From the NCBI GenBank assembly GCA_949751835.1, contig CATKHK010000077.1, forward strand, positions 124,001 through 188,000: DNA of 64,000 bases. Direction: 5' to 3'. The notes below the pieces were generated by a model. That model worked only from the letters and a program-made list of their open reading frames with translations. It searched no databases and was not told where the DNA came from. The stretch is from Blepharisma japonicum. Its lineage: Eukaryota; Ciliophora; Heterotrichea; Heterotrichida; Blepharismidae. Positions within the stretch are counted from its first letter, which is position 1; the number at the start of each line of letters is the position of its first letter. Below are positions 3,275 to 63,967 of the stretch, in pieces. The translations under genes and the position numbers were made by a program.

Positions 3275-4999
3275 TTATTTTCCTATCAGAGGTATTATGC
3301 AGTGTGTTAAATAAGACTCATAAGGGCTTCCTTTTGCTGCCTTTTTCACCTCTTTTCTATCTGCATCTAACAAAGCTAGTGCTATATCAGCAAATTTCAA
3401 ATACCAATGCAAAATTTGTTTTTCGCCTTGTCTCATTAGGGTACAGTTTCTTTGGTTTTCAGTTAGATCAGTTCTTTCTAAAATTTGACCATCTTCTTCT
3501 AAAGTTTCTGGATATAAAGCTATCCCATTTTCCGCAAGTTTTTTGACATGTTGAAGAACTCTTCTTTCATTTGCCAAAGAAATTGGCTTAACTTTGCTTG
3601 GCTTGAACCCAGGCTGATCTTCTTCTTGGCATTCCTCCATTATTCTAGGCAAAATTGAGATGTCATTTAGCTCCAAAAACCTTAAAAATCCAAGAAATTC
3701 ATTAAAAATGTTTTCTTTTTCATCAGCTTGGACTCTAAAAGTTTGTGATGAATTTCCATCAATTAAACTTCTTTTTGTCATTAAATTAGGGTCATCTTCT
3801 CTTAATTTGCATTTAAATGGATATTCATTGGCATCATTATTTCTCACAATAAAGCCATAATTTAATAAAAACCTTGAGTTGCATTTTTTACCATAGCTGT
3901 CTAATACTTCAATTCCTCTTTCAATATCTTCCATAGCCTCAATAATAAAACCATTTTTTGATTCTTCATAAGACCATGTAGTTTGTCTAGGCCTTCTATG
4001 ATTTAGCATATCAGCAAGAGGGACAAAGCCATCAGTTTTATTTCCATCAATTTGCATGCCGAAAATTCTGGAGCTTACACCCATTCTGATTTTAGAAAAT
4101 TCAAAAAGAGGAAAGTTTGCGAATTCTGGGACAGCGTCTACAATACAATTATAATCCTCCTCAATATCTTGTATTTTTTCATTTACCTGTTCCAAAAATG
4201 GAGAACCCGTCAGCCACTCTTTATCTTCATCTGTATAAAATATTGGAAAATTAGAATAGCTTTCAGGCAAAATATCTAAATAAGGCTTCCACCAGCTTTC
4301 TTCTTTTGCTTTTTCCTGCAATATAAAAGAAGATAAAAATGAGTGTTTAGGAGACAACAAATTTAAATTCGCTGCAACCATTTTTTGGCCAATCGGAGTC
4401 GCTTTTGCCATTTCCAATGTAATTATATGAGATCTTGGAATAACCACAATACACTCATTTTTAGCTATAAAAGTTGTGCTGTGGACTCCTCTATAATCCT
4501 TCGAATAAAACCTCAGCTTTATTTTCGGAAATTTTGCTCCACCTTCAATCAGCCAATTAAACAGGTTTTCGAACTTTTTCCTTTCTGGGTGGTCCAAAGG
4601 AAGTGCGGTGTCAATCTCAATATCAGCTTCGATTTCTTTTTTTAATGCTAATAGCTCTGGAAACTCAGGGTTAATTGCAAGCCCACGATGTGCATAATCA
4701 AGTGCTTCTTGGAATCTGCTTAATTCCCTGTGAGCAACTGCCATACGATAGTAACCTTTGATTCAGCTGGGGTCAGTTTCTATAGCTTTGGCAGAATCTG
4801 TGATTGCGTCTTCATAGCGGCGAAGCTCTATATAAGCTGATGCTCGATTAGTCAAAAGTATGACATGCGCTGGGTCTAATTCAAGACCTTTTGTGTATAA
4901 TTCAAGAGCCCTTGAAAAATCGTGCATGTTGAAAGCAGAGTTACCTTTTTCTTTGAAGGATTCTGGAGTATCTCGCTTCTTTTTGCCTTTGCCACCCAT
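3275..4999 (-). CDS. TPR-SET domain lysine methyltransferase-like protein
   Basis: With TGA=Trp this is one frame of 574 residues; the TGA lies inside a TPR helix reading DPSWIKGYYRMAVAHREL. Residues about 8-115 form TPR repeats with the canonical NRASAYIELRRYEDA pattern. Residues about 165-370 form a SET domain of the SETD3/Rubisco-LSMT class, with PLADMLNH and the SYGKKCNSRFLLNYGF block that supply the AdoMet and active-site Asn-His and Tyr positions. A helical substrate-binding-type C-terminus follows. ATG at 4999 (MGGKGKKKRD) is chosen over an in-frame GTG at 5008. Family members use AdoMet to methylate Lys or His of non-histone proteins; the substrate here is unknown. It lies 98 bp downstream of the kinesin gene on the same strand. 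A decayed partial copy lies at 55351-56163. Confidence 0.85.
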
Positions 5000-6834
5000 T
5001 TTTAGCACTTTTATGGAAGAAAGTTATAGAAGTCCAAGAGAAAGCAAATTTTTTTAGAAAAACTATTCTTGAAACATTTGATATTAAGTTACGCTTTCTA
5101 AAATATAAAGCATTTTTCTTTATCTTTTCCACCTTTAGCATTTCTTCCAGATCCTTTAGAGCTTCCTTGATGACTCCCAGTTGTCGCAACCCTTTGAAGA
5201 CCAACTTCTCCTTCATTTTTATGCAAATTGCTTGTGGTCCCGATAGTCACTGCTCTTTGTATCCTATTTTCCATAACATTTTCTACACATGGCGCTTGTG
5301 CAGGCGCGCTCTCATACGTAGGCTTCTGCTTTTGATTTTTTTGTGTTTCTACCTTCATAGCCATTCCAGTCCCGAACACCGAAATTGCTAATTTTTTAGT
5401 CTGCATATAGTTGCATAAGAAATCATCTACAAGCACACTAGTAAATTGCTCCTTATAGCTAAAACTTGGATGTTCTGAATAGCCAGGAAATACATTGGTT
5501 CTTCGAATCCCAAGGCCTGGGAAATGGTACTCACAATATACATTATTTGCGTGGGACAAAGGAATATTCCAAGCATCATGGATTTCGACGCGGAAATTTA
5601 TGAGGGATCCTACAAGTTCTTCAGGTGTTTCTGGGCCTTCGTCTAGGTTGTTGCCTTCTTCGTCAGTAGGGACAATATTCATTTTAAGAAGCCCTGCATC
5701 TCCTCCACTTGTGCTGATTATGAGGATGTTAAAAGGGTTATCAAAAAGTAGACCTAGGGGTTTTAAAGAATAATAGCCTTTCCCAAGTAAATTTTCTTCT
5801 GGAGGATCCCATAGTGGGTCTTCTTCAGGGGACGGATCAGTTTGTTCGTCTAGCATTTCTCTGAGCATACAAAGCCTATCTTCGAATTTTTCTACATCTC
5901 ATAGCCAAATTAAGCCATAATCTTGGTTTTGTACTTCAACTTTGAGCTCTTTTTCCCAATAATCAGGCTCCAGGTCTTCTTCTTTTTCGACCTCATCAGG
6001 AAGAATATTGATGATTTTTACATTGAATTTTACATGTCGGCTTAAATCGGTTGCTATTAAATTGGCTTCGTTCACGAGTGGGAAAAGTTTTGCAAGCCGC
6101 GAATGAAGCTGGCGTTTTTTGCTTATTGGCTCAGGCTCTGGAAGGACTTCAGCGGCTGAAACAGGTTCTTGTGGAGGCTCAGCTGAATTTTCATGATTTT
6201 CAGGGTGTGTTTCAGGTTCAGCTACAATATCATTTTTAGGCTCTTCTTGAAGAGGAATTGAAGCTGTTTTTGTTAAAAGCGGGGTTGGAGGCTGTGGAGG
6301 TAGCTGCGGCAAATCTTTTTCTAGCTCTAATTGTTGGGCTTCATTTTTCTCTTCCATTGCAAATTCATAGTCAATATCATTTTCTTTGTATTTTGAGTCT
6401 TCTCCAGGTCTTTTGAATAAGTAAATTTGGTTAGTCCCTATGATGATTCTGTCCAAGTTCTTAAGAATTATTTTTTCATTAACTTTTTGACCGTTTACAT
6501 ATAAATATTCACTGCAAGAAGGATCTATAGGTTCTAACGTGATATTTTCATTTTCATCTTTATCAAAAGTGCAATGTCTTGGCCTAACACTTGAATTCGC
6601 AATAATTATATCCGGTTTGGGGTTTCCAATTTTTCTACCCACAACTAATGGCACACTATCAAAATTATAGACAACTTTTCCAGAAAGCAAATGATCTTCA
6701 TTAAGATTCGTAAGATGAGGGCCAGACCTATCAATTTCTGGTTCATATTCTTCTTTAACAGCATCTCTTTGCTGCTGCCAGCTTATTCTTTGTGCAGATG
6801 AAAATTTCTCATTTGCTTCTAGCTGCTCTCTTAG
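4236..6834. repeat. source of the 2.6-kb segmental duplication
   Basis: This stretch, from the middle of the TPR-SET gene through its 5' end and on to the kinesin coiled coil, is repeated with a few percent divergence at 55349-58022 in the same orientation. The source has intact frames in both genes and lacks the palindromic insertion found in the copy, so it is taken as the original. Confidence 0.9.
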
Positions 6835-8016
6835 TTCTCTTAATTTTTCAATTCCTCCTGCTTGTTCAATTAAAGATTTTAGCTCATCATTTTCTTTTGT
6901 AAGTTCTCTAATGATTTTTTCTTCTGGTGATTCATTAACAACTGCATGATTTTTTATTTTTTTTGCTCTATCAGCATATCTAAGTGTGGATAAAGTTTCT
7001 TCATAATTTACAGTGGCAGGAGAAAGGGCACAAACCATGACAGTTTTACTGTTCCCTCCCAAGGCGTTTTGTAGGATTCTTGTGAGTGCTGAATCTCTGT
7101 ATGGAATCACAATGCCTTTTTTATTGTCTTTTCCTGACGATTTTTCAGCTAAAGCTTCAATAACTGACCCTAATACGACCAAAGATTTATTAATAGCACA
7201 ACCTTCTTTAAGCCTTTCTCCAGTAGCTCCTGTTTGACCAGCTTTTTCACTGCCTGCTAAATCAACCAGATTAATAACAGAAACTTTTCCAGTTTTTGTA
7301 TCACCATTTATGATAATTTGCTTAAACTCTATAGTAAAAATTGTATGAGCCCTACTACTTGTAGCATTCATCTGTGTTGACCCAATCGATCTATTTGTGT
7401 TTCCTTTTTCCATCAATTTTTCAATTTCCGCATATGAACTGACAGGGTGTTTTGATAAATTTTCTACAAAAACTCCAGTGACTTTGCTTTCTCTAATTTT
7501 GAGGCCTCCTTGTGGTCTTTGGTTTACAGGGATTAACAAATCCTGTACTTTTTCATTATAAATTTCAAGCATACTTACCATAACTTCAAACATCAGATTC
7601 GGATTCGGATTTTGGTTAATTCTGACGAAGATTTCTTCTGAACTTACTGGGATGATGCCTTTATTCGCTCCATATCCTACCATAGAATAGGATTTTCCTG
7701 AGCCAGTTTGTCCATATGCAAAAAGGCAACAATTGTAACCTTCCCAAGCGTTGTTTAAAACTTGTTCTCCAAGCTCACGATACACTATTTGTTGGTCAGC
7801 ATATCGGTCGTCAGCTCTTAGCAGATAGCCATCTTCTCTTTCTGTGAAGCCATCGTGAGACCAAAAGGAATAATCAAATGAAAAATCTCTTGGATTGCCA
7901 GTTTTAGGGTCAGTAATTATAGTCATTTGACCATCCATTTTGATACAAAGCTGAGCGCCTAAGTCCTTTTCTCTAGTATTGAAAGGTCGGACTCTGACAG
8001 CAACTTTCACACTCAT
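5098..8016 (-). CDS. kinesin-3-like motor with FHA and C2-like domains and CaaX tail
   Basis: With one TGA read as Trp (GLIWLWDVEKF) the frame is 972 residues. The motor domain starts at residue 2 (KVAVRVRPF), with P-loop GQTGSGKS at about 102-109, switch I NATSSRAH and switch II DLAGSE. After a short coiled coil, an FHA domain (about 445-520) begins VVGRK and has S.RPRHC. A Pro/Glu-rich linker follows, then at about 800-870 a C2-like segment (NFRVEIHDAWNIPLSHAN) like the domain after the FHA of KIF1/KIF13. Such motors are plus-end vesicle or intraflagellar carriers. There is no PH domain. Instead the protein ends KCFIF, a CaaX-type sequence that would allow prenyl anchoring (inference). Part of the gene is duplicated in the chimeric ORF at 56262-58211. 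Confidence 0.9.
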
Positions 8017-40366: not shown

Positions 40367-41688
40367 TTAAATTTTTCTAATCTTTTTGCATTTCTTTTCC
40401 TCCATATCAAATTCATACAAATTATTCCCGTGAAAAGCAAAATAAACTTTATTTTGCCATGAAACTTTGCATCCAATTAAGTCGTTTTTTTCAGTTCCTG
40501 AGCTACCAATTGAGTTCCAGACTTTTCAATCATGGCTTCCTTCATAAATGTATCCGCCTGCTTCTATTACATAAGCATTTTCATCATTTCCACATACAAT
40601 TTTTCTTCACATTCCTGATTGAATGTTATGTAACTCGATGTAAATATTTTCAATAATATTATAGCAATATATCTTTGAGTGATCCCTACCAGAGAGTAAT
40701 ATTTTATTATTTTTACCCATACATGACACAAATGAAGATCGAGCTGGCAAAGGATTTAAGTTTTCTCATTTATTTTCTAATAAATTATATCTAAAAGCAT
40801 TACTTAAATATGCCTTTCATGCTAGTCCTCCAAAAATATAAACATTGTTATTATAATAAGTTGAGCCGCTGAGACTCAGACTATGCTGTGCATTAATTAC
40901 TTGCTTGACATTACTATTCGAATCAATAATAAATGCAGCATTTGTAGGTGTTGGATAATTTCCATAGCAAAAGATTGAATTTCCAGGAATTAGACACATT
41001 GTTAAAAATATGCCTTTTGGACTATCTAATGAGATATTGAATTCAGTTGATGAGTAATTATGTAAATCCATTTGGACAATTTTTGTGGAATTATCGCGAA
41101 AAATAATAAATCTATTTGATTCATTAATGAATGGCTCTTGTTTTGCTGCATCTGCATCATTCATAAAGTAATTTGATCCATCAAAAATACCAAAAGAATT
41201 TTTAAGACGCTTAATTGATTCTTCTGGTTCTGAAATCAGTATTTCATCTATTTCGGTCTTATTGACATTTGATATGACTTCTATTATCATTATTTCAGAA
41301 ATTATTTTCTGTTGCTTTTCTATAGACAGATCGAATCCTTCCAATGTAATTTTCATTTTCTCATTAATCTGCTTAACTTGCATTGAAAAATCTAAAACAG
41401 CATTTCTCCTTAACTCATATAAATCTGACAGCGATTTTGAATAATTAAAATAGGAGGTCTTCAGCATCTGTTCTGCTAAGATCAAGGTAGCGATTTGAGA
41501 AGATAATCAATAAGAACTCTTTTTGTTTCTGGGTTTGGTGATATTGCTAAGGGACCAGGAAGATGCCTAGATTTAGATGCAGTTTTCATGTGAGCTACGA
41601 GATGAATATCACATGAGTAAACAGGAGGATTTGTGCATGGGCAAGCAAACTCCAACTTGTTTTCGCAGTTGTCTTTTCAGCATTTCAT
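40367..41688 (-). pseudogene. kelch-array gene 4, interrupted by a 59-bp insertion
   Basis: The zinc module (MKCWKDNCENKLEFACPC ... VYSCDIHLVAH) is open from 41688. The rest, from the coiled coil to the last blade (ending EEKKCKKIRKI, stop 40367-40369), is open in another frame. Between them, near 41440-41500, paralogs are continuous. This copy has 59 extra bases flanked by an 8-bp direct repeat (aaatcgct), which breaks the frame. Apart from this, the gene is undamaged, so the insertion is recent. If the insertion were removed from the transcript the gene would be normal, but it lacks GT...AG borders. Confidence 0.7.
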
Positions 41689-44055: not shown

Positions 44056-46441
44056 TTTATAAATTAATGCAACAATCAATAGCCTAAGTAAGCTACCGAT
44101 ATAATTCACGGGTAAAGTTCAATTTTTGACAGTTGACTATAAATTTCACATGGCAAGATACTAAGAAAAGAAATTTACAGTCAACGATGACAGCTCAGAA
44201 CTCTAGAAAAAGAAATTAAAATTGTTTAATTACCAAGAGTAACAAAATTTTAATTATTTCTAATACTTTAACTATTTTCAAAGAGATTTTTGTCTTTCAC
44301 ATGCGTGTGCTATAATGAAAATTTATTTTCTTTACTTTCCTCCCTCCTCTATGGTCGAGTAAAAGCTTATCTAAGTTATAAATGCTTCTTGGAGAGTATT
44401 ATCTAGATCTGACAGGATTATTTATTCGTAAACCATTTTAGTATGCTAAAAAATTTCGAAATTTAAATATCTAATCAGGCAGCTAACTAGTAAAAGTATT
44501 TATAAATAATGAATTTATTAGCGATTCAAACAGATATAATATTGTCTCTTAATATGAATTTCCTATGATGAAATATGCAAACATAGATTTATCAGCATTC
44601 CCTTTAATTCCAAGTCAATCGCTGTAATATGAGAACCAGAAAATTTAATTGCAGCTGAATAGAAAATACTTTTGATATCAAAAAATGCAGTATAATATCC
44701 AAATTATTTTGCAAGCCAATTTCTCAACAAAAAGAGAAATGGATGAAAGCTTTCATATGAATTAGGAGAAGAATTGGCAGTCAAAATTCAGGAAGAAGAT
44801 ATTAACTAGTTATTTTAAAAAAAATGATGAGTATAGCTTTAGTGAGATGCAGAGTTAATCCATGAAAAAGAAAACTCAATAGGCCAAAATTAAAGGCTTA
44901 TCTTAGTAAATAAAAGCTTTAGATTGAGAAAAGAACTGAAGATATTTTTAATATTGATGAATTTCACATAGAAATGTAGTAGAAACTATGGTTGAATTAA
45001 TGTAAGAATTTCTTATGCTAAGTTACAAGATTTAAAATAAAAGCCTGCAAAGCTATCTCGCTGTGTCAAGTTTATTAAAATATTGCCAAACTCAATTTCA
45101 AATTCAGAACAGATTTTTAATGGGTAAAATATGAAGTTTTCTAATCAAACTCCATTAATATTTACCTCTGGAAATAGTTTATTTTCAAGAGAAATCGGAC
45201 TACTTACAAAATATATTTTGAATTCTTTTAGTATAAACCTGTTTATTAAACATCGGTAAATGCTCTAACGAAGTCCCTCTATTTTTGCAATATAATTCTC
45301 CTTTTAAGTTTTTGGTCTAATAGTCACAGATTTTCATCAATCAATTTATCCATAGATTTATTCAGTCTAATACTATTCATATATATGGACTTTTCATTTA
45401 CTAAAATTTTATAAAAATTTCTCGGTGAATAAGGATTTGCTATTAAATTTTAGCAACTTCACGTATTCTCTGTCTCTTTTACTTGCAGAAGGATAACTAT
45501 CTTCTAAAGACGTAAAAACGGAACTTCAGATGAATTGAATCAAATGATTTATTGCGTTCACTATATAATGAAAGATCAGGAGAAATAGAAGGAGTTTTTT
45601 TAACACTAAGATTCAAAACTTGAGCAAATTATGCAGAAATATTTTTTTGTGGTATTCAAATAGCGTTCTTCCATCACTTAGAGCTCTTAGGCCATTACGA
45701 AGCATAATTAATCCATCATCCCTATTATCTTCTAAATAATTTGCTTTAATACCATTAATAGAGTTCTGATAGTGATTTAAACAATAAGTCATATATAATT
45801 TGCTAATTGCTCTTATCGAATTAATTGAAAAGTTGTTTTCTTTGTTTGCTCATACTCTTTAAATATTTTTGTTTCGTCTTGCCTATTCAAAATGCTTTCA
45901 AAAGCAGTAAAAACTGAAAATCGATATCTATTTTAATCTTCTTCATAATTCCTTTCAACTTTGTATGCATTCCTTCAACACTGCTTGCTTTGAAAATAAT
46001 TTCTGGCTATTTTTAAAGATTCTTCAATGTTTCTTAAATGGACACAATTCAGCCAATTCAATTGAGGAAAATTCGCGCATATCTCTCTTTGTTAAAAATT
46101 AGCGTCTAAAAGAAATTCAATCATTTTTATTAGCAGATTGAACAATTATTACAGTGTTTTCTCCAATAGCACATTTAGCATAAACAATGTCTGTTACGAT
46201 TGAATTTAACTCTCAGATGCTAGATCTATAGCAATACCCTTGCAGTATATCGTCTTCTATGCTATTTTGAGAGCCTCTTGATGTCAGTTCTAGCTCTATT
46301 TACAAATTATGGCCTATTTGGCAACTAATTAAGTCAATATCAACGATTTACAATTAAAATATTAGATATAGCATATAATTTGCGGCATAAAATCCAAATT
46401 TTAAAATATTGCTAGTTATACGCTAAGCTTAGCTTTAGTTA
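44056..46441. repeat. array spacer type A, copy 1
   Basis: A 2.4-kb spacer repeated at 50770-52951 (shortened by internal deletions) and from 62404 to the end of the window. Its left third carries the same plus-strand remnant as spacer B. Its right two thirds carry a minus-strand gene remnant, listed separately. The 3' flank of the kelch gene (atattagatatagcatataat) recurs at its right end. Confidence 0.8.
45050..46320 (-). pseudogene. decayed unknown gene in spacer A, copy 1
   Basis: The minus strand shows runs of convincing protein between breaks, with TGA as Trp: YCYRSSIWELNSIVTDIVYA, KCAIGENTVIIVQSANKNDW, DMREFSSIELAELCPFKKHW and RYRFSVFTAFESILNRQDET. The same text occurs in the two other spacer-A copies. 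The original was a protein gene on the same strand as the kelch genes, and it was duplicated with them. Family unknown. It has several breaks and looks old relative to the kelch genes. Confidence 0.5.
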
Positions 46442-47707
46442 TTAATCTATTATTCTTTTGATCTTTTTGCATTTCTTTTCTTTCATATCAAATTCACATA
46501 AATTATAACCTCTAAAAGCAAAATAAACTTTATTTTGCCATGAAACACTACATCCAATTAAGTCTGCATTTTTAATTCCTGAGCTACCTATCGTACTCCA
46601 GGCTCTTCATTCATGGCTTCCTTCATAAATATATCCGTCTGATTCAATTACATAAGCATTTTTATTATTTCCACATACAATTTTTGACTTTTCTGATTGA
46701 ATGTTATGCAACTCAATGTAGTTATTTTGAATAATATCATAGCAATAGATCTTTGAGTGCTGCCTACCAGATAGTAATATTTTATTATTTTTAGCCATGC
46801 ATGACACATTATAGGATGGAACTGGCAAAGGATTTAAGTTTTCTCATTTGTTTTCTAATAAATTATGTCTAAATGTATTATTTACAGACGCATTTCCATT
46901 ATGTCCTCCAAAAATATAAACACAGCTATTATAATAAATAGAGCCACTTAATCCCAGACTATGCTCTGCATTAACTACTTGTTTAACATTATTATTCGAT
47001 TCAATAATAAATGCAGTATTTGTAATTGGTTGATGATTTCCATAGCAAAAGATTGCGTTTTCAGGAATTAAGCACATTACTATGTAATTGCTTTTTGGGC
47101 TATCCAATGAGATATTGAATTCAGTTGATGAGTAATTATTTAAATCAGTTTGCACAATTTTTGTGGAATCATTACGAAAAAGAATAAATCTATTTGATTC
47201 TTTTATAAGAGGCTCTGTTGTTAATTTCCCTTCATCATCTATAAAGAAGTTAGACCCATCAAAAATATCAAAAGAATTTTTGAGGAGACTAATTGCTTTT
47301 TCTGGTTCTAAAGCCAGCATCTCATCTATTTTAGTCTTGTTAAAATTTGATATGGCTTCTGTTAGCTTTATTTCAGATATTATTTTGCGCTGCTTTTTTA
47401 TAGATTCGTCGAATGATTCCAATGTAACTTGCATTTTCTCATTAAGTTGCTTAATTTGTATTGAAAAATCTGAAACAATCTTTCTCCTTAGCTCATACAA
47501 ATCTGATAGCGATTTGTTAAGACAATCAATAAGAGCTCTTTTTGTTTCTGGATTTGGTGAAGTTGCTAAGGGATCAGGAAGATGCCTAGATTTAGATGCG
47601 GTTCTCATATGAGCTGCGAGATGGATAGCACATGAATAAACAGGCGGATTTCTGCATGGGCAAGCAAACTCCAACTTATTTTGGCAGTGATCATTTCAGC
47701 ACTTCAT
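46442..47707 (-). CDS. kelch-array gene 7, intact (subfamily a)
   Basis: 421 residues, start MKCWNDHCQNKLEFACPC. Coiled coil SIQIKQLNEKMQVTLESFDE; blades include VYIFGGHNGNASVNNTFRHN and LLSGRQHSKIYCYDI; a conserved W (TGA) lies in SHEWRAWSTIG. The end is KKIKRIID, three residues longer than its sisters because the usual TTTAA end has changed. All TGA codons fall at conserved Trp positions. Confidence 0.8.
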
Positions 47708-48627
47708 TTTATAAGCTAATCTACAAAAATTAATAGCCTAAGTAAACTACCGATATCATTCATAGTTAATAGTATAAGTCTTGGCAATTGACTATGAATT
47801 TTACATGTCAAGAAACCGAGAAAATAAATTTACAGTCCAAGATAACAGCTCAGAATTCTAGAAAAAGAAATTAAAAATGTTCAATTACCAAGATTAACAA
47901 AATTTTAATTATTTCTAATATTTTTAACTATTTTAAAAGAGATCTTTGTCTTCCACATACATATATTATATTAAATATTTATTTTATTTAGTAAAAAGTA
48001 TTTAATTATGTTAGCCAACTCAAACAAATATGATATTGTCTCATCAAAATAAATTAAATGTTATGGAAGATATTAGCATATATTTGCCACATTTGTTTAA
48101 TTCAAAGTCAATCCCTGCAATATGAGAACCAGAAAATTTGATTGCAACAGAATGGGAAATACTTTTGTCAAGCACAAGAATCTATATGATTAGCAAATCA
48201 ATTATTTAACAAATCAGCAAAAAGGAAAAGCTCTCATACGAATTAGTAGAAGAACCGGTAATCAAAGTTCATAAAGAAACCCGAATGAAAATAATAACTA
48301 GTTAGTTTTTAAAAAGAATCAAAAGAAAAGAATGTTTATAGCTTTAATAAGATACAGAGTTATCCATGAAAAAAGAAAATTCAATTAGACCAAAAATTAT
48401 AAGGCTTATTATATTTTGTTGAAAGTAATGAAAAATTATTATATATTGGTGAATTCCACATAGCACAATGCAATAGAAATTATGGTTGAATAAAGTTAGA
48501 ATTACTTATGCTAAATTACAAGATTTCAAATAAAAGCCTGCAAAGTTATCTCGCTGTGTCAAATTCTTATGAATTATTGCTTGAATAGAAATTGAAGATT
48601 GAAATAATGGGGTAGTAGTGAAAACCC
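47708..48627. repeat. array spacer type B, copy 1
   Basis: Repeated at 58212-59080. On the plus strand both copies keep a gene remnant: MEDISIYLPHLFNSKSIPAI, then WEPENLIATEWEI with a TGA as the first Trp, and KLSYELVEE further on. The same remnant, more decayed, starts the type-A spacers. No family recognised; it has several breaks. Confidence 0.6.
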
Positions 48628-50769: not shown

Positions 50770-52951
50770 TTTATAAATTAATGCAACAATCAATAGCCTA
50801 ACAGTTCAATTTTTGACGATTGACTATAAATTTCACATGGCAAGAAACTAAGAAAAGAAATTTACAGTCAATGATGACAGCTCAGAACTCTAGAAAAAGA
50901 AATTAAAATTGTTTAATTATCAAGAGTAACAAAATTTTAATTATTTCTAGTACTTTAACTATTTTCAAAGAGCTTTTTGTCTTTCACATGCGTGTGTTAT
51001 AATTAAAATTTATTTTCTTTATAAATTATAAATGCTTCTTGGAGAGTATTATCTAGATCTGACAGGATTATTTATTCGTAAACCATTTTAGTATGCTAGA
51101 AAATTTCGAAATTTAAATATCTAATCAGGAGGCTAACTAGTAAAAGTATTTATAAATAATGAATTTGTTAGCGATTCAAATAGATATAATATTGTCTCTT
51201 AATATGAATTTCCTTTGATGAAATATGCAAACATAGATTTATCAGCATTCCCTTTAATTCCAAGTCAATCGCTTTAATATGAGACCTAGAAAATTTAATG
51301 GCAGCTGAATAGAAAATATTTTTGATATCAAAAAATGCATCATAATATCCAAATTATTTTGAAAGCCAATTTCTCAACAAAAAGAGAGAAGGATGAAAGC
51401 TTTCATATGAATTAGGAGAAGGATTGGCAGTCAAAATTCAGGAAGAAAATATTAGCTAGTTATTTTTAAAAAAAATCAAAAGAATGGTGGGTACAGCTTT
51501 AGTAAAATGCAAAAAAGATAACTCAATTAGGCCAAAATTAAAGGCTTATCTTAGTATGTAAAAGCTTTATATTTAGAAAAGAAATGAAGATATTATTAAT
51601 ACTGATGAATTTCACATAGAAATGTAATAGAAACTATGGTTTCATTAACGTTAGAATTTCTTATTCTAAATTACAAGATTTAAAATAAAAGCCTGCAAAG
51701 CTATCTCGCTGTGTCAAGTTCATCAACATATTACCAAACTCAATTTCAATGTCAGAACAGACTTTTAATGGGTAAATATAGAGTTTTCTGATCAAACTCC
51801 ATTAATATTTACCTCCGGAAATAGTTTATTTTCAAGAGAAATCGGACTACTTACAATATTTTTTGAATTCTTTTAGTATAAACCTGTTTATTAAGCATCG
51901 GTAAATAAAATTTTATGAAAATTTCTCAACGAATAAAGATCTGCTATTAATTTTTAGCAATTTCACATATTCTCTGTCTCTTTTACTTGCAAAAGGATAA
52001 CTATCTTCTAAAGACGTAAAAACGGAACTTCAGATGAATTGAATCAAATGATTTGTTGCGTTCACTATATAATGAAAGATCAGGAGAAATAGAAGGAGTC
52101 TTCTTAACACTAAGATTCAAAACTTGAGCAAATTACGCAGAAATATTATTTTATGGTATTCAAATAACATTTTTCCGTCACTTAGTGCTTTTAGGCCATT
52201 ACGAAGCATAATTAATCCATCATCCCTATTATCTTCTAAATAATTTGCTTTAATACCATTATAAGAGTTCTGATAGTGATTTAAACATAAGTCATATATA
52301 ATTTGCTAATTGCTCTTATCGTATTAATTGAAAAGTTGTTTTCTTTGTTTGCTCATACTCTTTAAATATTTTTTTTCGTCTTGCCTACTCAAAATACTTT
52401 CAAAAGCAGTAAAAACTGAAAATCGATATCTATTTTAATCTTCTTCATGATTCCTTTCAACTTTGTATGCATTACTTCAACACTACTTGCTTTGAAAATG
52501 ATTTCTGGCTATTTTTAAAGATTCTTCAATGTTTCTTAAATGGACACAATTCAGCCAATTCAATTGAGGGAAATTCGCGCATATCTCTCTTTGTTAAAAA
52601 TTAGCGTCTAAAAGAAATTCAATCATTTTTATTAGCAGATTGAACAATTATTACAGTGTTTTCTCCAATAGCACATTTAGCATAAACAATGTCTGTTACG
52701 ATTGAATTTAACTCTCAGCTGCTAGATCTATAGCAATACCCTTGCAGTATATCGTCTTCTATGCTATTTTGAGAGCCTCTTGATGTCAGTTCTAGCTCCA
52801 TTTACAAATTATGGCCTATTTGGCAACTAATTAAGTCAATATCAACGATTTACAATTAAAATATTAGATATGGCATATAATCTGTGGCATAAAATCCAAA
52901 TTTTAAAATATTGCGAGTTATACGTTAAGCTTAGCTTAAGTTATTAATCTA
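50770..52951. repeat. array spacer type A, copy 2
   Basis: Same content as 44056-46441, about 200 bp shorter because of deletions, the largest near 51,900 (text present at about 45,257-45,405 in copy 1 is absent). Confidence 0.8.
51710..52830 (-). pseudogene. decayed unknown gene in spacer A, copy 2
   Basis: The same minus-strand remnant as at 45050-46320 (YCYRSSSWELNSIVTDIVYA; DMREFPSIELAELCPFKKHW), with its own deletions. Several breaks; family unknown. Confidence 0.45.
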
Positions 52952-54209: not shown

Positions 54210-54334
54210 TTATAATTTAATGAACAAAATTAATAGGCTTTGCGAATCATGATAAAGTTATAATCTGTGGCATAAAATCCAAGATTTAAAAATATCGCTA
54301 ATAATGCGCTAAGCTTACTTTAGTTATTAATCTA

Positions 54335-55350
54335 TTAAATTGTTTTGATCTTTTTGCATTTCTTTTCTTTCATATCAAATTCATATAAATTATAAGTATC
54401 AAAAGCAAAATAAACTTTATTTTACCATGAAATTTTGCATCCAATTAAGTCGTGATTTTCAATTCCTGAACTACCTATCGTACTCCATGCTCTTCATTCA
54501 TGGCTTCCTTCATAAATATATCCTCCTGATTCTATTACATAAGCATTTTTATTATTTCCACATACAATTTTGACTTTCTTGGTTGAATATTATGCAACTC
54601 AATGTAACTATTTTGAATAATATCATAACAATAGATCTTTGAGTGCTGCCTACCAGATAGTAATATTTTATTATTTTTAGCCATGCATGACACAAGTGAG
54701 GAGGAACTGGCAAAGGATTTAAGTTTTTTCATTTGTTTTCTAATAAATTATATCTAAATGCATTATTTACAGGCGCACTTCCATTTCCTCCTCCAAAAAT
54801 ATAAACACAGCCATTATAATAAATAGAGCCATTGGCATACAGACTATGCTCTGCATTAACTACTTATTTAACATTATTATTCGATTCAATAATAAATGCA
54901 GTATTTGCAATTGGATAATTTCCATAGCAAAAAATTGAGTTTTCAGGAATTAAACACACTACTATGTAATAATGTTTTGGACTATCTAATGAGATATTGA
55001 ATTCAGTTGATAAGTAATTATTTAAATCTGTTTGCACAATTTTTGTGGAATTATCACGAAAAAGAAAAAATCTATTTGATTCTTTTATTAAAGGCTCTGT
55101 TGTTAATTTCCCTTCATCATCTATAAAGAAGTTAGACCCATCAAAAATCTCAAAAGAATCTTTAAGGAGACTAATGGCTTTTTCTGGCTCTGATGCCAGC
55201 ATCTCATCTATTTTAGTCTTGTTAAAATTTGATATGGCTTCTGCTAGCTTTATTTCAGATATTATTTTGCGCTACTTTTTATAGATTCGTCGAACGATTC
55301 CAATGCAATTTGCATTTTCTCGTTAAGTTGCTTAATTTGTTTTGAAAAAT
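54335..55350 (-). pseudogene. 3' part of kelch-array gene 11, cut off by an inserted segment
   Basis: Kelch-family sequence from QIKQLNEKMQIALESFDE to the last blade, in several frames, with stop at 54335-54337. Its natural 5' end is at 58023-58211, on the far side of the 2.67-kb inserted segment. About eight codons (RRKIVSDFS-like) were lost at the insertion point. Three or more frame changes show that this half is no longer under selection. Confidence 0.8.
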
Positions 55351-56163
55351 AAAATATTGGAAAATTAGAATAGCTTTCAGGCAAAATATCTAAATAAGGC
55401 TTCCACCTGCTTTCTTCTTTTGCTTTTTCCTGCAATATAAACGAAGATAAAAAGGAATGTTTAGGAGACAACAAATTTAAATTACCGCAACCATATTTTG
55501 GCCAATTGGAGTCGTTTTTGTCATTTACAATGTAATTATATGAGATCTTGGAATAACCACAATACACTCATTTTTAGCCATAAAAGTTGTGTGGGGACTC
55601 CTCTATAATCTTTCGAATAAAACCTTAACTTTATTTTCGGAAATTTTGCTCCACCTTCAATCAGCCAATTAAACAGGTTTTCGAACTTTTTCCTTTCTGG
55701 ATGGTCCAAAGGAAGTGCTGTCTCAATCTCCATATCAGCTTCGATTTCTTTTTTTAATACTAATAACTCTGGAAACTCAGGGTTAATTGCAAACCCACGA
55801 TGTGCATAATCAAGTGCTTCTTGGAATCTGCATAATTCCCTGTGAGTAACTGCCATACGATAGTATAGAAATTGCCCGAGGATGACGCTATCTTGCGCCA
55901 TCCTCGGGCAATTTGTATAGCCTTTATTTCAGCTGGGTCAGTTTCTATAGCTTTGGCAGAATCTATGATTGCGTCTTCATAGTGGCGAAGCTCTATATAA
56001 GCTGATGCTCGATTAGTCAAAAGTATGACATGCGCCGGGTCTAATTCAAGACCTTTTGTGTATAATTCAAGAGCCCTTGAAAATCGTGCATGCTGAAATC
56101 AGAGTTACCTTTTTCTTTGAAGGATTCTAGAGTATCTCGCTTCTTTTTGCCTTTGCCACCCAT
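55351..56163 (-). pseudogene. decayed partial copy of the TPR-SET gene
   Basis: Starts like the source (MGGKGKKKRDTLESFKEKGN) at 56163. It loses the frame in the first TPR through a missing A, is interrupted by the palindromic insertion at about 55866-55919, has further small indels, and ends inside the SET domain (SYSNFPIF) where it meets kelch sequence. It lacks the catalytic half of SET and cannot be functional. Confidence 0.88.
55866..55919. mobile_element. TA-flanked palindromic insertion (MITE- or IES-like), about 54 bp
   Basis: Absent from the source copy (cgatagtaaccttt at about 4745-4758), present here as cgatagta...tagccttt, with TA on both sides. The insert is a nearly perfect inverted repeat: arms aaattgcccgaggatg (55869-55884) and catcctcgggcaattt (55899-55914), continued by acgc/gcgc around the loop tatctt. 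The arms are far richer in GC than their surroundings. TA target duplication plus short inverted arms fits a Tc1/mariner-type MITE, or a germline-limited internal eliminated sequence retained in macronuclear DNA. Confidence 0.75.
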
Positions 56164-56261
56164 TTTTAGCACTTTTATGGAAGAAAGTAATAGAAGTTCA
56201 AGAGAAAGCAAAATTTTTTAGAAAAATTATTCTTGAAACAATTGATATTAAGTTACGCTTT

Positions 56262-58211
56262 CTAAAATATAAAGCATTTTTCTTTATCCTTTTCACCTTT
56301 AGCCTTTTTTTCATATCTTTTAAAATTTTTTTGATGACTCCCAGTTATCGCAATCCTTTGAAGACCAACTTCACCTTCATTTTTATGCAAATTGCTTGTG
56401 CTCCCGATAGTCACTGCTCTTTGTATCATATTTTCTATAACATTTTCTATAACATTTTCTATAACATTTTCTAAACATGGTACTTTTGCAGGCGCGCTCT
56501 CATACGTAGGCTTCTTCTTCAGAATTTTATATGTTTCTACCTTCATAGCCATTCCAGTCCCGAACACCGAAATTGCTAATTTTTTAGTCTGCATATGGTT
56601 GCATAAGAAATCATCTACAAGCACACTAGTAAATTGCTCCTTATAGTTAAAATTAGGACGTTCTGAATAGCCAGGAAATACATTGGTTCTTCGAATCCCA
56701 AGGCCTGGGAAATGGTACTCACAATATACATCATTTGCATGGGACAAAGGAATATTTCAAGCATCATGGATTTCGACTCGGAAATTTATGAGGGATCCTA
56801 TAAGTTCTTCAGGGGTTTCTGGGCCTTCGTCTAGGTAGTTGCCGTCTTCGTCAGTAGGGACAATATTCATTTTAAGAAGCCCTGCGTCTCCTCCACTTGT
56901 GCTGATTATGAGGATGTTAAAAGGGTTATCAAAAAGTAGCCCTAGGGGTTTTAAAGAATAATAGCCTTTCCCAAGTAAATTTTCTTCTGGAGGATCCCAT
57001 AGTGGGTCTTCTTCAGGGGACGGATCAGTTTGTTCGTCTAGCATTTCTCTGAGCATACAAAGCCTATCTTCGAATTTTTCTACATCTCATAGCCAAATTA
57101 AGCCATAATCTTGGTTTTGTACTTCTACTTTGAGCTCTTTTTCCCAATAATCAGGCTCCAGGTCTTCTTCTTTTTCGACCTCATCAGGAAGAATATTGAT
57201 GATTTTTACATTGAATTTTACATGTCGGTTTAAATCGGTTGTTATTAAATTGGCTTCGTTCACAAGTGGGAAAAGTTTTGCAAGTCGCGAATGAAGCTGG
57301 CGTTTTTTGCTTATTGGCTCAGGCTCTGGAGGGACTTCAGCGGCTGAAACAGGTTCTTGTGGAGGCTCAGCTGAATTTTCTTGATTTTCAAGGTGTGTTT
57401 CAGGTTCAGCTACAATATCATTTTTAGGCTCTTCTTGAGGAGGAATTGAAGCTGTTTTTGTTAAAAGTGGGGTTGGAGGCTGCCAAGGTAGCTGCCGTAA
57501 ATCTTTTTCTAGCCCTAATATTTGGGCTTCGTATTTCTCTTCCATTGCAAATTCATAGTCAATGTCTTTTTCTTTGTATTTTGAGTCTTCTCCAGGTCTT
57601 TTGAATAAATAAATTTGGTTAGTCCCTATGATGATTCTGTCCAAGTTCTTAAGAATTATTTTTTCAATAACTTTTTGACCGTTTACATATAAATATTCAC
57701 TGCAAGAAGGATCTATAGGTTCTAACGTGATATTTTCATTTTTATCTTTATCAAAAATGCAATGTCTTGGCCTAATACTACAATTCGCAATAATTATATC
57801 CGGTTTGGGAATTCCAACTTTTCTACCCACAACTAATGGCACACTATCAAAATTATGGACAACTTTGCCAGAAAGCAAATAATCTTCATTAAGATTCGTA
57901 AGATGAGGGCCAGACCTATCAATTTCTGGTTCAAATTCTTCTTTAACAGTATCTCTTTGCTGCTTCCAGCTTATTCTTTGTGCAGATGAAAATTTCTCAT
58001 TTTCTTCTAGCTGTTCTCTTAGCTCATACAAATCTGATAGCGATTTGTTTTCTGGATTTGGTGAAGTTGTTAAGGGGCCAGGAAGATGCCCAGATTCAGA
58101 TGCGGTTTTCATATGAGCTGAGAGATGGATATCACATGAATAAACAGGAGGATTTGTGCATGGGCAAACAATTTCCACCTTATTTTCGCAGTGGTCGTTT
58201 CAGCACTCCAT
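56262..58211 (-). CDS. chimeric gene: kelch-family zinc module fused to kinesin FHA/C2/CaaX tail
   Basis: An uninterrupted frame of 649 residues with TGA=Trp. Residues 1-63 (MECWNDHCENKVEIVCPC ... KSLSDLYEL) are the zinc module and start of the coiled coil of kelch gene 11, including its start codon. From there it continues in frame as REQLEENEKFSSAQRISW, the kinesin coiled coil. The FHA domain (VVGRKVGIPKPDIIIA) follows, then the Pro/Glu-rich linker, the C2-like domain (NFRVEIHDAWNIPLSHAN) and the CaaX-like end KCFIF. There is no motor domain. The frame stayed open although the neighbouring SET copy decayed, which hints at selection or at simple luck. Compared with its kelch sisters, nine codons are missing after SPNPENK. 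A VIEN repeat is expanded. Confidence 0.85.
56431..56478. repeat. 12-bp tandem repeat expansion in the chimeric ORF
   Basis: ttttctataaca is present three times and once partially. The kinesin source (about 5262-5290) has a single unit and a partial one. It encodes repeated ENVI-type residues and keeps the frame. Confidence 0.8.
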
Positions 58212-59080
58212 TTTTATAAGTAATCTACAAAAATTAAAAGCCTAATTAAACTACTGATATCATTCATGGTTAATAGTATAAGTCTTGGCAATTGACTACA
58301 CATCAAGAAACCGAGAAAATAAATTTACAGTTACAAGATGACAACTCAGAATTCGAGAAAAGAAATTAAAGATGTTCAATTACCAAGATTAACAAAATTT
58401 TTATTATTTCTAATATTTTTAACTATTTTAAAAGAGATCTTTGTCTTTCACATACATATGTTATATTAAATATTTATTTTATTTAGTAAAAAGTATTTAA
58501 TTATGTTAGCCGACTCAAGCAAATATGATATTGTCTCATTTAATAAATTAATTGTGATGGAAGATATTAGCATAGATTTGCCACATTCGTTTAATTCAAA
58601 GTCAATCCCTGCAATATGAGAACCAGAAAATTTGATTGCAATTGAATGGAAAATACTTTTGCCAAGCATAAGATCCAAATTATTTCAAATCAATTTTTAA
58701 CAAATCGGCGAAAAGGAGCTCTCATACGAATTAGTAGAAGAACTGGCAATCCAAGTTCATAAAGAAATCAGGAATGAAAATATTAACTAGTTAGTTTTTA
58801 AAAAGAATCAAAAGAAAAGAATGTTGATAGATTAAATAAGATGCAGAGCTATCCATTAAAAAAAAAAACTCAATTAGGTAAAAAATAGAAGGCTTATTAT
58901 ATTTAGTTGAAATTAATGAAGAATTATTATATATTGGTGAATTGCACATAGCACAATGCAATAGAAATTATGGTTAAATAAAGTTAGAATTCCTTAAGTA
59001 ATTACAAAATTTCAAAAAAAGCCTGCAAAGCTATCTCGCTGTGTCAAATTCTTATAAATTATTGCTTGAATAGAAATTGA
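58212..59080. repeat. array spacer type B, copy 2
   Basis: Copy of 47708-48627. It keeps the plus-strand remnant MEDISIDLPHSFNSKSIPAI, WEPENLIAIEWKI (starting near 58559), in a frame that closes soon after. This places the promoter side of kelch gene 11 and of the chimeric ORF in a typical array context. Confidence 0.7.
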
Positions 59081-59293
59081 AGATTGAAATAATGGCATTA
59101 AATGATAAGAATGATTATGAATATTAAGTGCTCCCTTATCGTTACGAAATATAATTTTAGCTCTAAAAATTAGTACAGCGGGAATGTTAATAGATGCTTA
59201 TCTGCTGCATATTAGATAAATTAATGCTGAACTTTAAAATTACATTTGAACTTAAAGAGTTAAAATGGTTTAAAATTACATAGTAAAAGTTTG

Positions 59294-62403: not shown

Positions 62404-63239
62404 TTTATAAATTAATGCAACAATCAATAGCCTAAGTAAGCTACCGATATCATTTATGGTATCAGTATAATTATTGACAATTGACTATAAATTTCACATG
62501 GAAAGAAACTAAGAAAAGAAATTTACAGTCAACAATGACAGCTCAGAACTCTAGAAAAAGAAATTAAAATTATTTAATTACCAAGATAACAAAATTTTAA
62601 TTATTTCTAATACTTTAACTATTTTCAAAGAGATTTTTGTCTTTCACATGCTTATGCTATCATGAAAATTTATTTTATTTACTTTAACTAGTAAAAGTAT
62701 TTATAAATAATGAATTTGTTAGCGATTCAAACAGATATAATATTGTCTCTTAATATGAATTTCCTTTGATAAAATATGCAAACATAAATTTATCAGCATT
62801 CCCTTTAATTCCAAATCGCTGTAATATGAGACCCATAAAATTTAATGGCAGCTGAATAGAAAATATTTTTGATATCAAAAAATGCATCATAATATCCAAA
62901 TTATTTTGAAAGCCAATTTCTCAACAAAAAGAGAAAAGGATGAAAGCTTTCATATGAATTAGGAGAAGAATTGGCAGTCAAAATTCAGGAAGAAAATATT
63001 AGCTAGTTATTTTTAAAAAAAATCAAAAGAATGGTGGGTACAGCTTTAGTTAGATGCAAAAAAGATAACTCAATTAGGCCAAAATTAAAGGCTTATCTTA
63101 GTAAGTAAAAGCTTTATATTTAGAAAAGAAATGAAGATATTATTAATACTGATGAATTTCACATAGTAATGTAATAGAAACTATGGTTGCACTAATGTAA
63201 GAATTTCTTATTCTAAATTACAAGATTTAAAATAAAAGC

Positions 63240-63967
63240 CTGCAAAGCTATCTCGCTGTGTCAAGTTCATCAACATATTACCAAACTCAATTTCAATGTC
63301 AGAACAGATTTTTAATGGGTAAAATATGGAGTTTTCTGATCAACTCTCCATTAATATTTACCTCCGGAAATAGTTTATTTTCAAGAGAAATCGGATTACT
63401 TACAATATATTTTGAATTTTTTTAGTATAAACCTGTTTATTAAACATCGGTAAATGCTCTCACAAAGTCCCTCTATTTTGCAATATAATTCTCCTTTAAG
63501 TTTTTTGTCTAATAGTCACAGATTTTCATCAATCAATTTATCCATAGATTTATTCAGTCTAATACTATTCACCTATGCGGATTTATCATTTACTAAAATT
63601 TTATAAAAATTTCTCAACGAATAAAGATCTGCTATTAATTTTTAGCAATTTCACGTATTCTCTGTCTCTTTTAGTTGCAAAAGGATAACTATCTTCTAAG
63701 GACTTAAAAACGGAACTTCATATGAATTGAATCAAATGATTTATTGCGTTCACTATATAATGAAAGATCAGGAGAAATAGAAGGAGTCTTCTTAACACTA
63801 AGATTCAAAACTTGAGCAAATTTAGCAGAAATATTGTTTTTATGCTATTCAAATAGCGTTCTTCCATCACTTAGTGCTCTTAGGCCATTACGAAGCATAA
63901 TTAATCCATCATCCCTATTATCTTCTAAATAATTTGCTTTAATACCATTAATAGAGTTCTGATAGCG
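63240..63967 (-). pseudogene. decayed unknown gene in spacer A, copy 3
   Basis: The same minus-strand remnant as in the other two type-A spacers (e.g. the tract reading NKSMDKLIDENLWLLDQK, with TGA as Trp). It continues beyond the window. Several breaks; family unknown. Confidence 0.4.

What the first reader, a model, noticed from the sequence alone, without database searches (positions are those of the whole stretch)
56262..58211. In-frame chimeric gene born from a segmental copy: kelch-family zinc module plus motorless kinesin tail
A 649-codon frame joins the start codon, zinc module and first coiled-coil turn of a kelch-array gene to the FHA, C2-like and CaaX-like parts of the kinesin-3-like gene about 50 kb away. 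All Trp-TGA codons, the FHA core and the CFIF end are preserved. The TPR-SET part of the same inserted copy has decayed. A motorless kinesin tail could act as a dominant competitor for cargo or membrane, or it may be a young gene without function.
Basis: partly seen in the sequence, partly recalled or inferred. Interest (0 to 1): 0.88.

Follow-up and report, generated by a model that had tools for sequence, protein, structure and literature searches.

The report
Young in-frame kelch–kinesin-tail fusion gene
A 2.6-kb piece of a motor-protein gene was copied into a member of a nearby gene family and made one long readable fusion that lacks the motor; it may be a new regulatory protein, or a young copy that has not yet broken down.

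Summary
Window 4235-6837 was copied, same orientation, to 55349-58025, inside a kelch-array gene, replacing about 17 bp of it, with short microhomologies and no target-site duplication. Under TGA=Trp this gives a clean 649-codon frame: kelch start codon, Cys/His module and first coil turn, then the tail of a kinesin-3.

The 'C2-like' part is better read as the MBS-MATH region of kinesin-3. The junction falls at or just inside coiled coil CC1a, so the fusion keeps what in C. elegans KLP-6 folds back on the motor (CC1-FHA-CC2-MBS-MATH), without motor or neck coil.

Selection is ambiguous. Seven of seven 1-bp deletions counted in the inserted SET piece and orphaned kelch 3' coding part lie outside the fusion frame (P about 0.006). 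No stop has arisen (P 0.04-0.2). But dN/dS is 0.62, amino-acid change is near neutral overall, and the last 89 codons change freely. MBS-MATH looks constrained (P 0.017), but so does the decayed SET piece (P 0.022). Expression could not be tested.

Young chimeric genes are known (Drosophila Sdic). I favour a retained, probably expressed fusion over a neutral leftover, only modestly.

The parts
56262..58211 (-). chimeric ORF, 649 codons, TGA=Trp
58026..58211 (-). kelch-derived part: start codon, Cys/His module (C3, C8, C16, C18, C26, H29, H33 invariant in 8 of 8 aligned proteins, fusion included), first coil turn; in-frame 27-bp deletion relative to kelch copy 46442-47707
58014..58025 (-). kelch/kinesin junction; shared CTAAG
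56262..58022 (-). kinesin-3 tail copy: CC1, FHA (codons 127-196), CC2, MBS-MATH region (codons 306-555), Cys-Phe-Ile-Phe end
56452..56475 (-). 24 bp present in the copy and not in the donor, in frame (placement within a repeat is arbitrary)
55349..56261 (-). rest of the inserted copy: spacer plus truncated, broken TPR-SET piece (four 1-bp deletions, one in-register TAA, 54-bp insert)
55866..55919 (-). 54-bp insertion holding perfect 16-bp inverted arms, CTATAC on both sides
55347..55350 (.). left junction, 2-bp overlap; about 17 bp of kelch lost between the two junctions
54300..55348 (-). orphaned 3' part of the interrupted kelch gene; three 1-bp coding deletions, a fourth after the stop position, and nonsense codons (2, 3 in the pieces)
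58212..58485 (-). upstream region shared with kelch copies (58026-58485 is 89.8% identical to 47541-47990); presumed promoter
5098..8016 (-). donor: intact kinesin-3 gene, 972 codons
3275..4999 (-). donor neighbour: intact TPR-SET frame, 574 codons

Best explanation
A 2.6-kb segment carrying the 3' part of a kinesin-3 gene and the 5' part of the next gene was copied into a kelch-array gene by a microhomology-type join (copy and junctions shown; mechanism inferred). This made an in-frame fusion with the kelch start codon and upstream region and the kinesin's own stop codon (shown). The fusion is most likely transcribed from the kelch promoter (inferred), and its frame has been kept by selection for at least part of its life (moderate statistical support). 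The product would be a motorless kinesin-3 regulatory module, CC1-FHA-CC2-MBS-MATH with a CaaX-like end, fused to a Cys/His module. By the KLP-6 model it would act on the full-length kinesin in trans, either docking on its motor or pairing with an opened monomer to give a one-headed dimer, and could also compete for cargo or membrane (inferred, untested).
For: Copy, junctions and open frame. Seven of seven 1-bp deletions in the compared coding stretches fall outside the frame (4 SET piece, 3 kelch remnant): P 0.0057, or 0.005-0.012 when weighted by homopolymer content; the two indels inside it, 27 and 24 bp, are multiples of three. No stop: P 0.037 if all 83 substitutions are on the copy, 0.098 if 58, 0.21 if 40. 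MBS-MATH replacement:silent is 0.34 of neutral expectation, P 0.017. KLP-6 contacts N410 and W421 are kept as N71 and W82, and R538/Y563/E569 as R192/Y219/E225 (roles from passages of PMC9314371). The isolated CC1c-FHA-CC2-MBS-MATH module of KLP-6 is relatively stable alone (PMC9314371 section 11). Cys/His positions invariant in 8 of 8.
Against: Overall N:S is 0.71 of neutral expectation, P 0.15; 54 changed residues against 58.9 expected, P 0.13. The last 89 codons have N:S 1.27 of expectation. The decayed SET piece shows the same depression (0.43, P 0.022), so the MBS-MATH value cannot be credited to constraint on the copy. Kelch part: changes unique to the fusion are 8 replacement to 3 silent against four intact copies, 6:3 with a fifth, frameshifted copy added. 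Conserved KLP-6 positions are not significantly spared (4/125 vs 20/273, P 0.12). Of 23 mapped KLP-6 contact residues, 15 differ in the fusion and 16 in the donor. If the spacer, which has no deletion, is added to the broken side, the SET-only test is P 0.012 rather than 0.006. The frame was chosen for study because it is open. No expression, protein or outgroup data.
Confidence: 0.5

Rival explanations
1. Neutral passenger: a recent segmental insertion whose frame is still open by luck; not selected, and expressed, if at all, only as noise.
For: dN/dS 0.62 and N:S close to neutral; fast change in the C-terminal 89 codons; lower FHA score; an in-frame join has a 1-in-3 chance; if only about 40 changes fell on the copy, P(no stop) is 0.21.
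Against: All seven 1-bp deletions counted in the compared coding stretches lie outside the frame, P about 0.006; the Cys/His positions are kept.
Confidence: 0.4
2. Assembly artefact: the junctions are misjoins.
For: No reads could be examined.
Against: The insert differs from the donor by about 5%, so it is not a misplaced donor read. Both flanks belong to kelch units, with only about 17 bp missing between them, which would need two coordinated misjoins.
Confidence: 0.03
3. The donor was a different, lost or unseen paralogue of the kinesin/TPR-SET region, and the insertion is much more recent than the 5% divergence suggests. (Overlaps with either of the first two readings, so the odds do not add to 1.)
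For: The SET piece shows depressed N:S (0.43), as if constrained during part of its divergence; a 288-bp stretch with one difference (57229-56940) suggests uneven history or gene conversion.
Against: The kinesin part has N:S 0.71 of neutral, high for two functional kinesins; no other copy in the window at the reporting cut-off. The rest of the genome was not available.
Confidence: 0.15

Closest known systems
Sdic, Drosophila melanogaster (AnnX-Cdic chimera; PMC3395120, passages seen)
   Same: Young chimeric gene made by duplication and fusion of a motor-complex gene with an unrelated gene; both parents intact elsewhere; sits in a repeated gene cluster
   Different: Sdic comes from neighbouring parents and has reported expression and a sperm-competition effect; this fusion comes from a copy inserted about 51 kb away and has no functional evidence
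Kinesin-3 KLP-6 (C. elegans), PDB 7wrg
   Same: The fusion retains the CC1-FHA-CC2-MBS-MATH order that folds back on the motor
   Different: No motor or neck coil; adds a Cys/His module and a CaaX-like end; 125/398 aligned tail positions identical
Kelch-array genes of the same window
   Same: Start codon, Cys/His module, start of the coil, upstream region
   Different: No beta-propeller: the fusion leaves the kelch gene after about 63 residues

Membership tests
Kinesin-3 (donor gene 5098-8016) | Motor domain closest to kinesin-3 | tested here: met
   Pfam Kinesin 2.3e-104; the top PDB chains are 7wrg, KIF1A and KIF13B
Kinesin-3 (donor gene 5098-8016) | FHA domain after the neck/CC1 | tested here: met
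   PF00498 1.1e-09 at 458-527; Kinesin_assoc PF16183 just below its cut-off, 29.1 vs 29.5 bits
Kinesin motor protein (the fusion) | Motor domain | tested here: not met
   No kinesin motor match in P0001 at E up to 0.1; it is not a kinesin motor
Kinesin-3 tail (the fusion) | FHA and MBS-MATH regions | tested here: met
   PF00498 4.7e-08; 7wrg aligned to codons 58-225 and 306-555, E 5.9e-32
Kinesin-3 autoinhibitory module (works like) | Contact residues of KLP-6 | tested here: inconclusive
   25 residues named in passages of PMC9314371 were looked up (not every one the paper names), 23 could be mapped; 8 match in the fusion (E409, N410, W421, V466, R538, Y563, E569, L597), 7 in the donor
Kelch protein (the fusion) | Kelch repeats | tested here: not met
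   No kelch match in P0001 at E up to 0.1
CaaX prenylated protein | C-terminal Cys-a-a-X that is modified | not testable with these tools
   C-F-I-F end is the same in donor and fusion; the CaaX reading is recalled knowledge, modification untested
Functional young gene | Expression | not testable with these tools
   No RNA data held
Functional young gene | Constraint on the coding frame | tested here: inconclusive
   Frameshift test P about 0.006; N:S near neutral

The most novel reading that the evidence does not exclude
A single copying event cut a kinesin-3 at the boundary between its motor/neck and its autoinhibitory module and put the free module under the promoter of a fast-evolving kelch family, creating in one step a selected, diffusible (or membrane-anchored) inhibitor of the parent motor.
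Probability: 0.12. Interest if true: 0.75.

Novelty: new member of a known kind. Interest (0 to 1): 0.45.

Why it matters
If expressed and kept, it would be a natural instance of a motor's autoinhibitory module turned into a separate gene, and would show how a segmental insertion into a gene array makes a new domain combination. It is young enough that donor, recipient and broken by-products can all still be read, so its age and fate are testable. If neutral, it is a clear snapshot of a fusion gene before decay.

Tried and rejected
Structure of the fusion: AlphaFold2 with two sequences gave mean pLDDT 30.3 and was not used. Own genome: none held. Outgroup: one viral-contig scan with the donor tail found no relative; the prokaryote collection was not scanned, since an outgroup there is unlikely, and no metagenome scan was allowed. 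Direction of change without outgroup: G/C-to-A/T against A/T-to-G/C differences, donor to copy, are 67:28, which suggests most change is on the copy; but at the eight differences where one protein matches KLP-6, fusion and donor split 4:4 (16 more match neither), so the polarity is not firm. 16-nt GT-AG hits at 57083 and 5895 lie inside the open frame of both genes and were dismissed; the intron scan as a whole is not informative, since lengths 13 and 20 give as many or more hits on the minus strand. A fourth 1-bp deletion in the kelch remnant (counted as coding, where P was 0.0036 for 8 of 8) lies after the stop position and was dropped from the final count (7 of 7). One search lists one 'stop' among the kinesin changes: it is a single-change step of a codon with more than one change, not a stop in the frame. 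Literature (10 searches): 28, 29 and 50 returned no paper; two found 56 and 196 partial matches, of which I saw 8 listed each and none, by title and abstract start, describes this; one returned two papers, seen as listing only; PMC10946202 was searched for kelch and kinesin, with no occurrence, as was PMC9942806.

Full report
What is there. The window is from an organism that very likely reads TGA as Trp: of 37 ATG-started frames of at least 150 codons under code 4, 25 contain a TGA. A kinesin-3, a TGA=Trp code and compact genes fit Blepharisma, for which UGA=Trp is reported (PMC9942806, passages). The species was not proven, and a scan for 15-16-nt introns was not informative. The frame 56262-58211 on the minus strand is 649 codons.

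Origin. Self-comparison shows 4235-6837 copied to 55349-58025, same strand. On the kelch side the unit runs 54259-55350 and resumes at 58014. About 17 bp of kelch sequence are missing between the two points; the joins share CTAAG on the right and AT on the left, and I see no target-site duplication. This reads as a microhomology-type repair or template switch rather than transposition (inference). Window 58026-58485 is 89.8% identical to the upstream and start of the intact kelch copy 46442-47707, so the fusion probably has a kelch promoter (inference).

What the protein would be. Codons 1-63 are kelch: seven Cys/His positions are invariant in 8 of 8 aligned proteins, the fusion included. From codon 64 on it is the tail of the donor kinesin. 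The donor is a kinesin-3. In the fusion Pfam finds FHA (4.7e-08), and phmmer aligns codons 58-225 and 306-555 to PDB chain 7wrg (5.9e-32). PMC9314371 names 7WRG once (counted, that passage not displayed), and the residues it lists agree with that chain where aligned, so 7wrg is taken as KLP-6. That paper (passages; section 11) describes KLP-6 as motor-neck coil-CC1-FHA-CC2-MBS-MATH, with the segments after the neck folding back to lock the motor (the MATH domain has little contact with the motor), and reports that CC1c-FHA-CC2-MBS-MATH is relatively stable alone. Fusion codon 64 corresponds to KLP-6 residue 403; the CC1a contact N410 is N71 and the CC1b contact W421 is W82. So the cut leaves out motor and neck coil and keeps CC1 onwards. 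Of 25 contact residues looked up, 23 could be mapped; the fusion matches KLP-6 at 8 and the donor at 7. Both differ from KLP-6 at the rest, so the detailed interface is not shown to be the same.

Is it kept by selection? For: 1-bp deletions. The SET piece has four; the kelch 3' coding remnant has three against four intact copies; the fusion frame has none. Conditional probability 0.0057 by length, 0.005-0.012 weighted by homopolymer runs; SET piece alone (4 of 4) 0.005-0.0105, or 0.012 with the deletion-free spacer added. The two indels within the frame are 27 bp and 24 bp; the 27-bp one may be older than the fusion. Stops: none, P 0.037 to 0.21 depending on how many of the 83 differences fell on the copy. 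Against: dN 0.044, dS 0.071, ratio 0.62, where a constrained parent and a free copy would be expected to give about 0.5 to 1 (reasoning, not a call). Replacement:silent relative to the mutation spectrum is 0.71 overall (P 0.15), 0.83 for CC1-FHA, 0.64 linker, 0.34 MBS-MATH (P 0.017), 1.27 for the last 89 codons, but 0.43 (P 0.022) for the decayed SET piece too. The kelch part has 8 replacement and 3 silent changes of its own against four intact copies. The remnant's unique changes number 26 in 339 codons (2 of them nonsense), against 12, 17, 20 and 25 in the four intact copies, so the insertion need not be old. A cold spot, 57229-56940, has one difference in 288 bp (at most 2 in some 300-bp window: P 0.004); it lies in the MBS region and may be constraint or gene conversion.

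Verdict. The fusion is real in this sequence and young. I judge a retained, expressed fusion slightly more likely than a neutral leftover (0.5 against 0.4; the paralogue-donor rival overlaps with both). The mechanism, action on the parent kinesin in trans, is inference from KLP-6. The kind of event is known from Sdic (PMC3395120, passages).

Noticed in passing
55866-55919: 54-bp insert in the broken SET piece with perfect 16-bp inverted arms (AAATTGCCCGAGGATG), CTATAC on both sides, 48% GC in an AT-rich window; a 15-base part of the arm matches nowhere else in the window with up to 3 mismatches. Looks like a tiny MITE-like element; shorter than the 65-bp first peak reported for Blepharisma IESs (PMC9942856 passages).
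   Followed up: partly
44497-45086, 47985-48610, 51147-51721, 58480-59095, 62690-63290: A non-kelch element repeated between kelch units; pairs range from about 71% to 96% identity. Translating five copies in the three plus-strand frames showed no long frame; the minus strand was not translated.
   Followed up: partly
35779-62403: Kelch array of about a dozen units and fragments, seven intact frames used here. Changes unique to each of four close intact copies are 10:2, 19:6, 13:4 and 15:5 replacement to silent, so the family seems weakly constrained or diversifying; a neutral ratio was not computed for kelch (for the kinesin codons it was 3.0-3.5).
   Followed up: partly
56940-57229: Stretch with one difference from the donor in 288 bp, in a copy that is otherwise about 5% diverged; possible gene conversion between loci 51 kb apart.
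   Followed up: partly
41437-41488: Kelch copy 40367-41467 is broken by about 59 bp of extra sequence within some 20 bp of the coil position where the kinesin piece entered the other copy.
   Followed up: no
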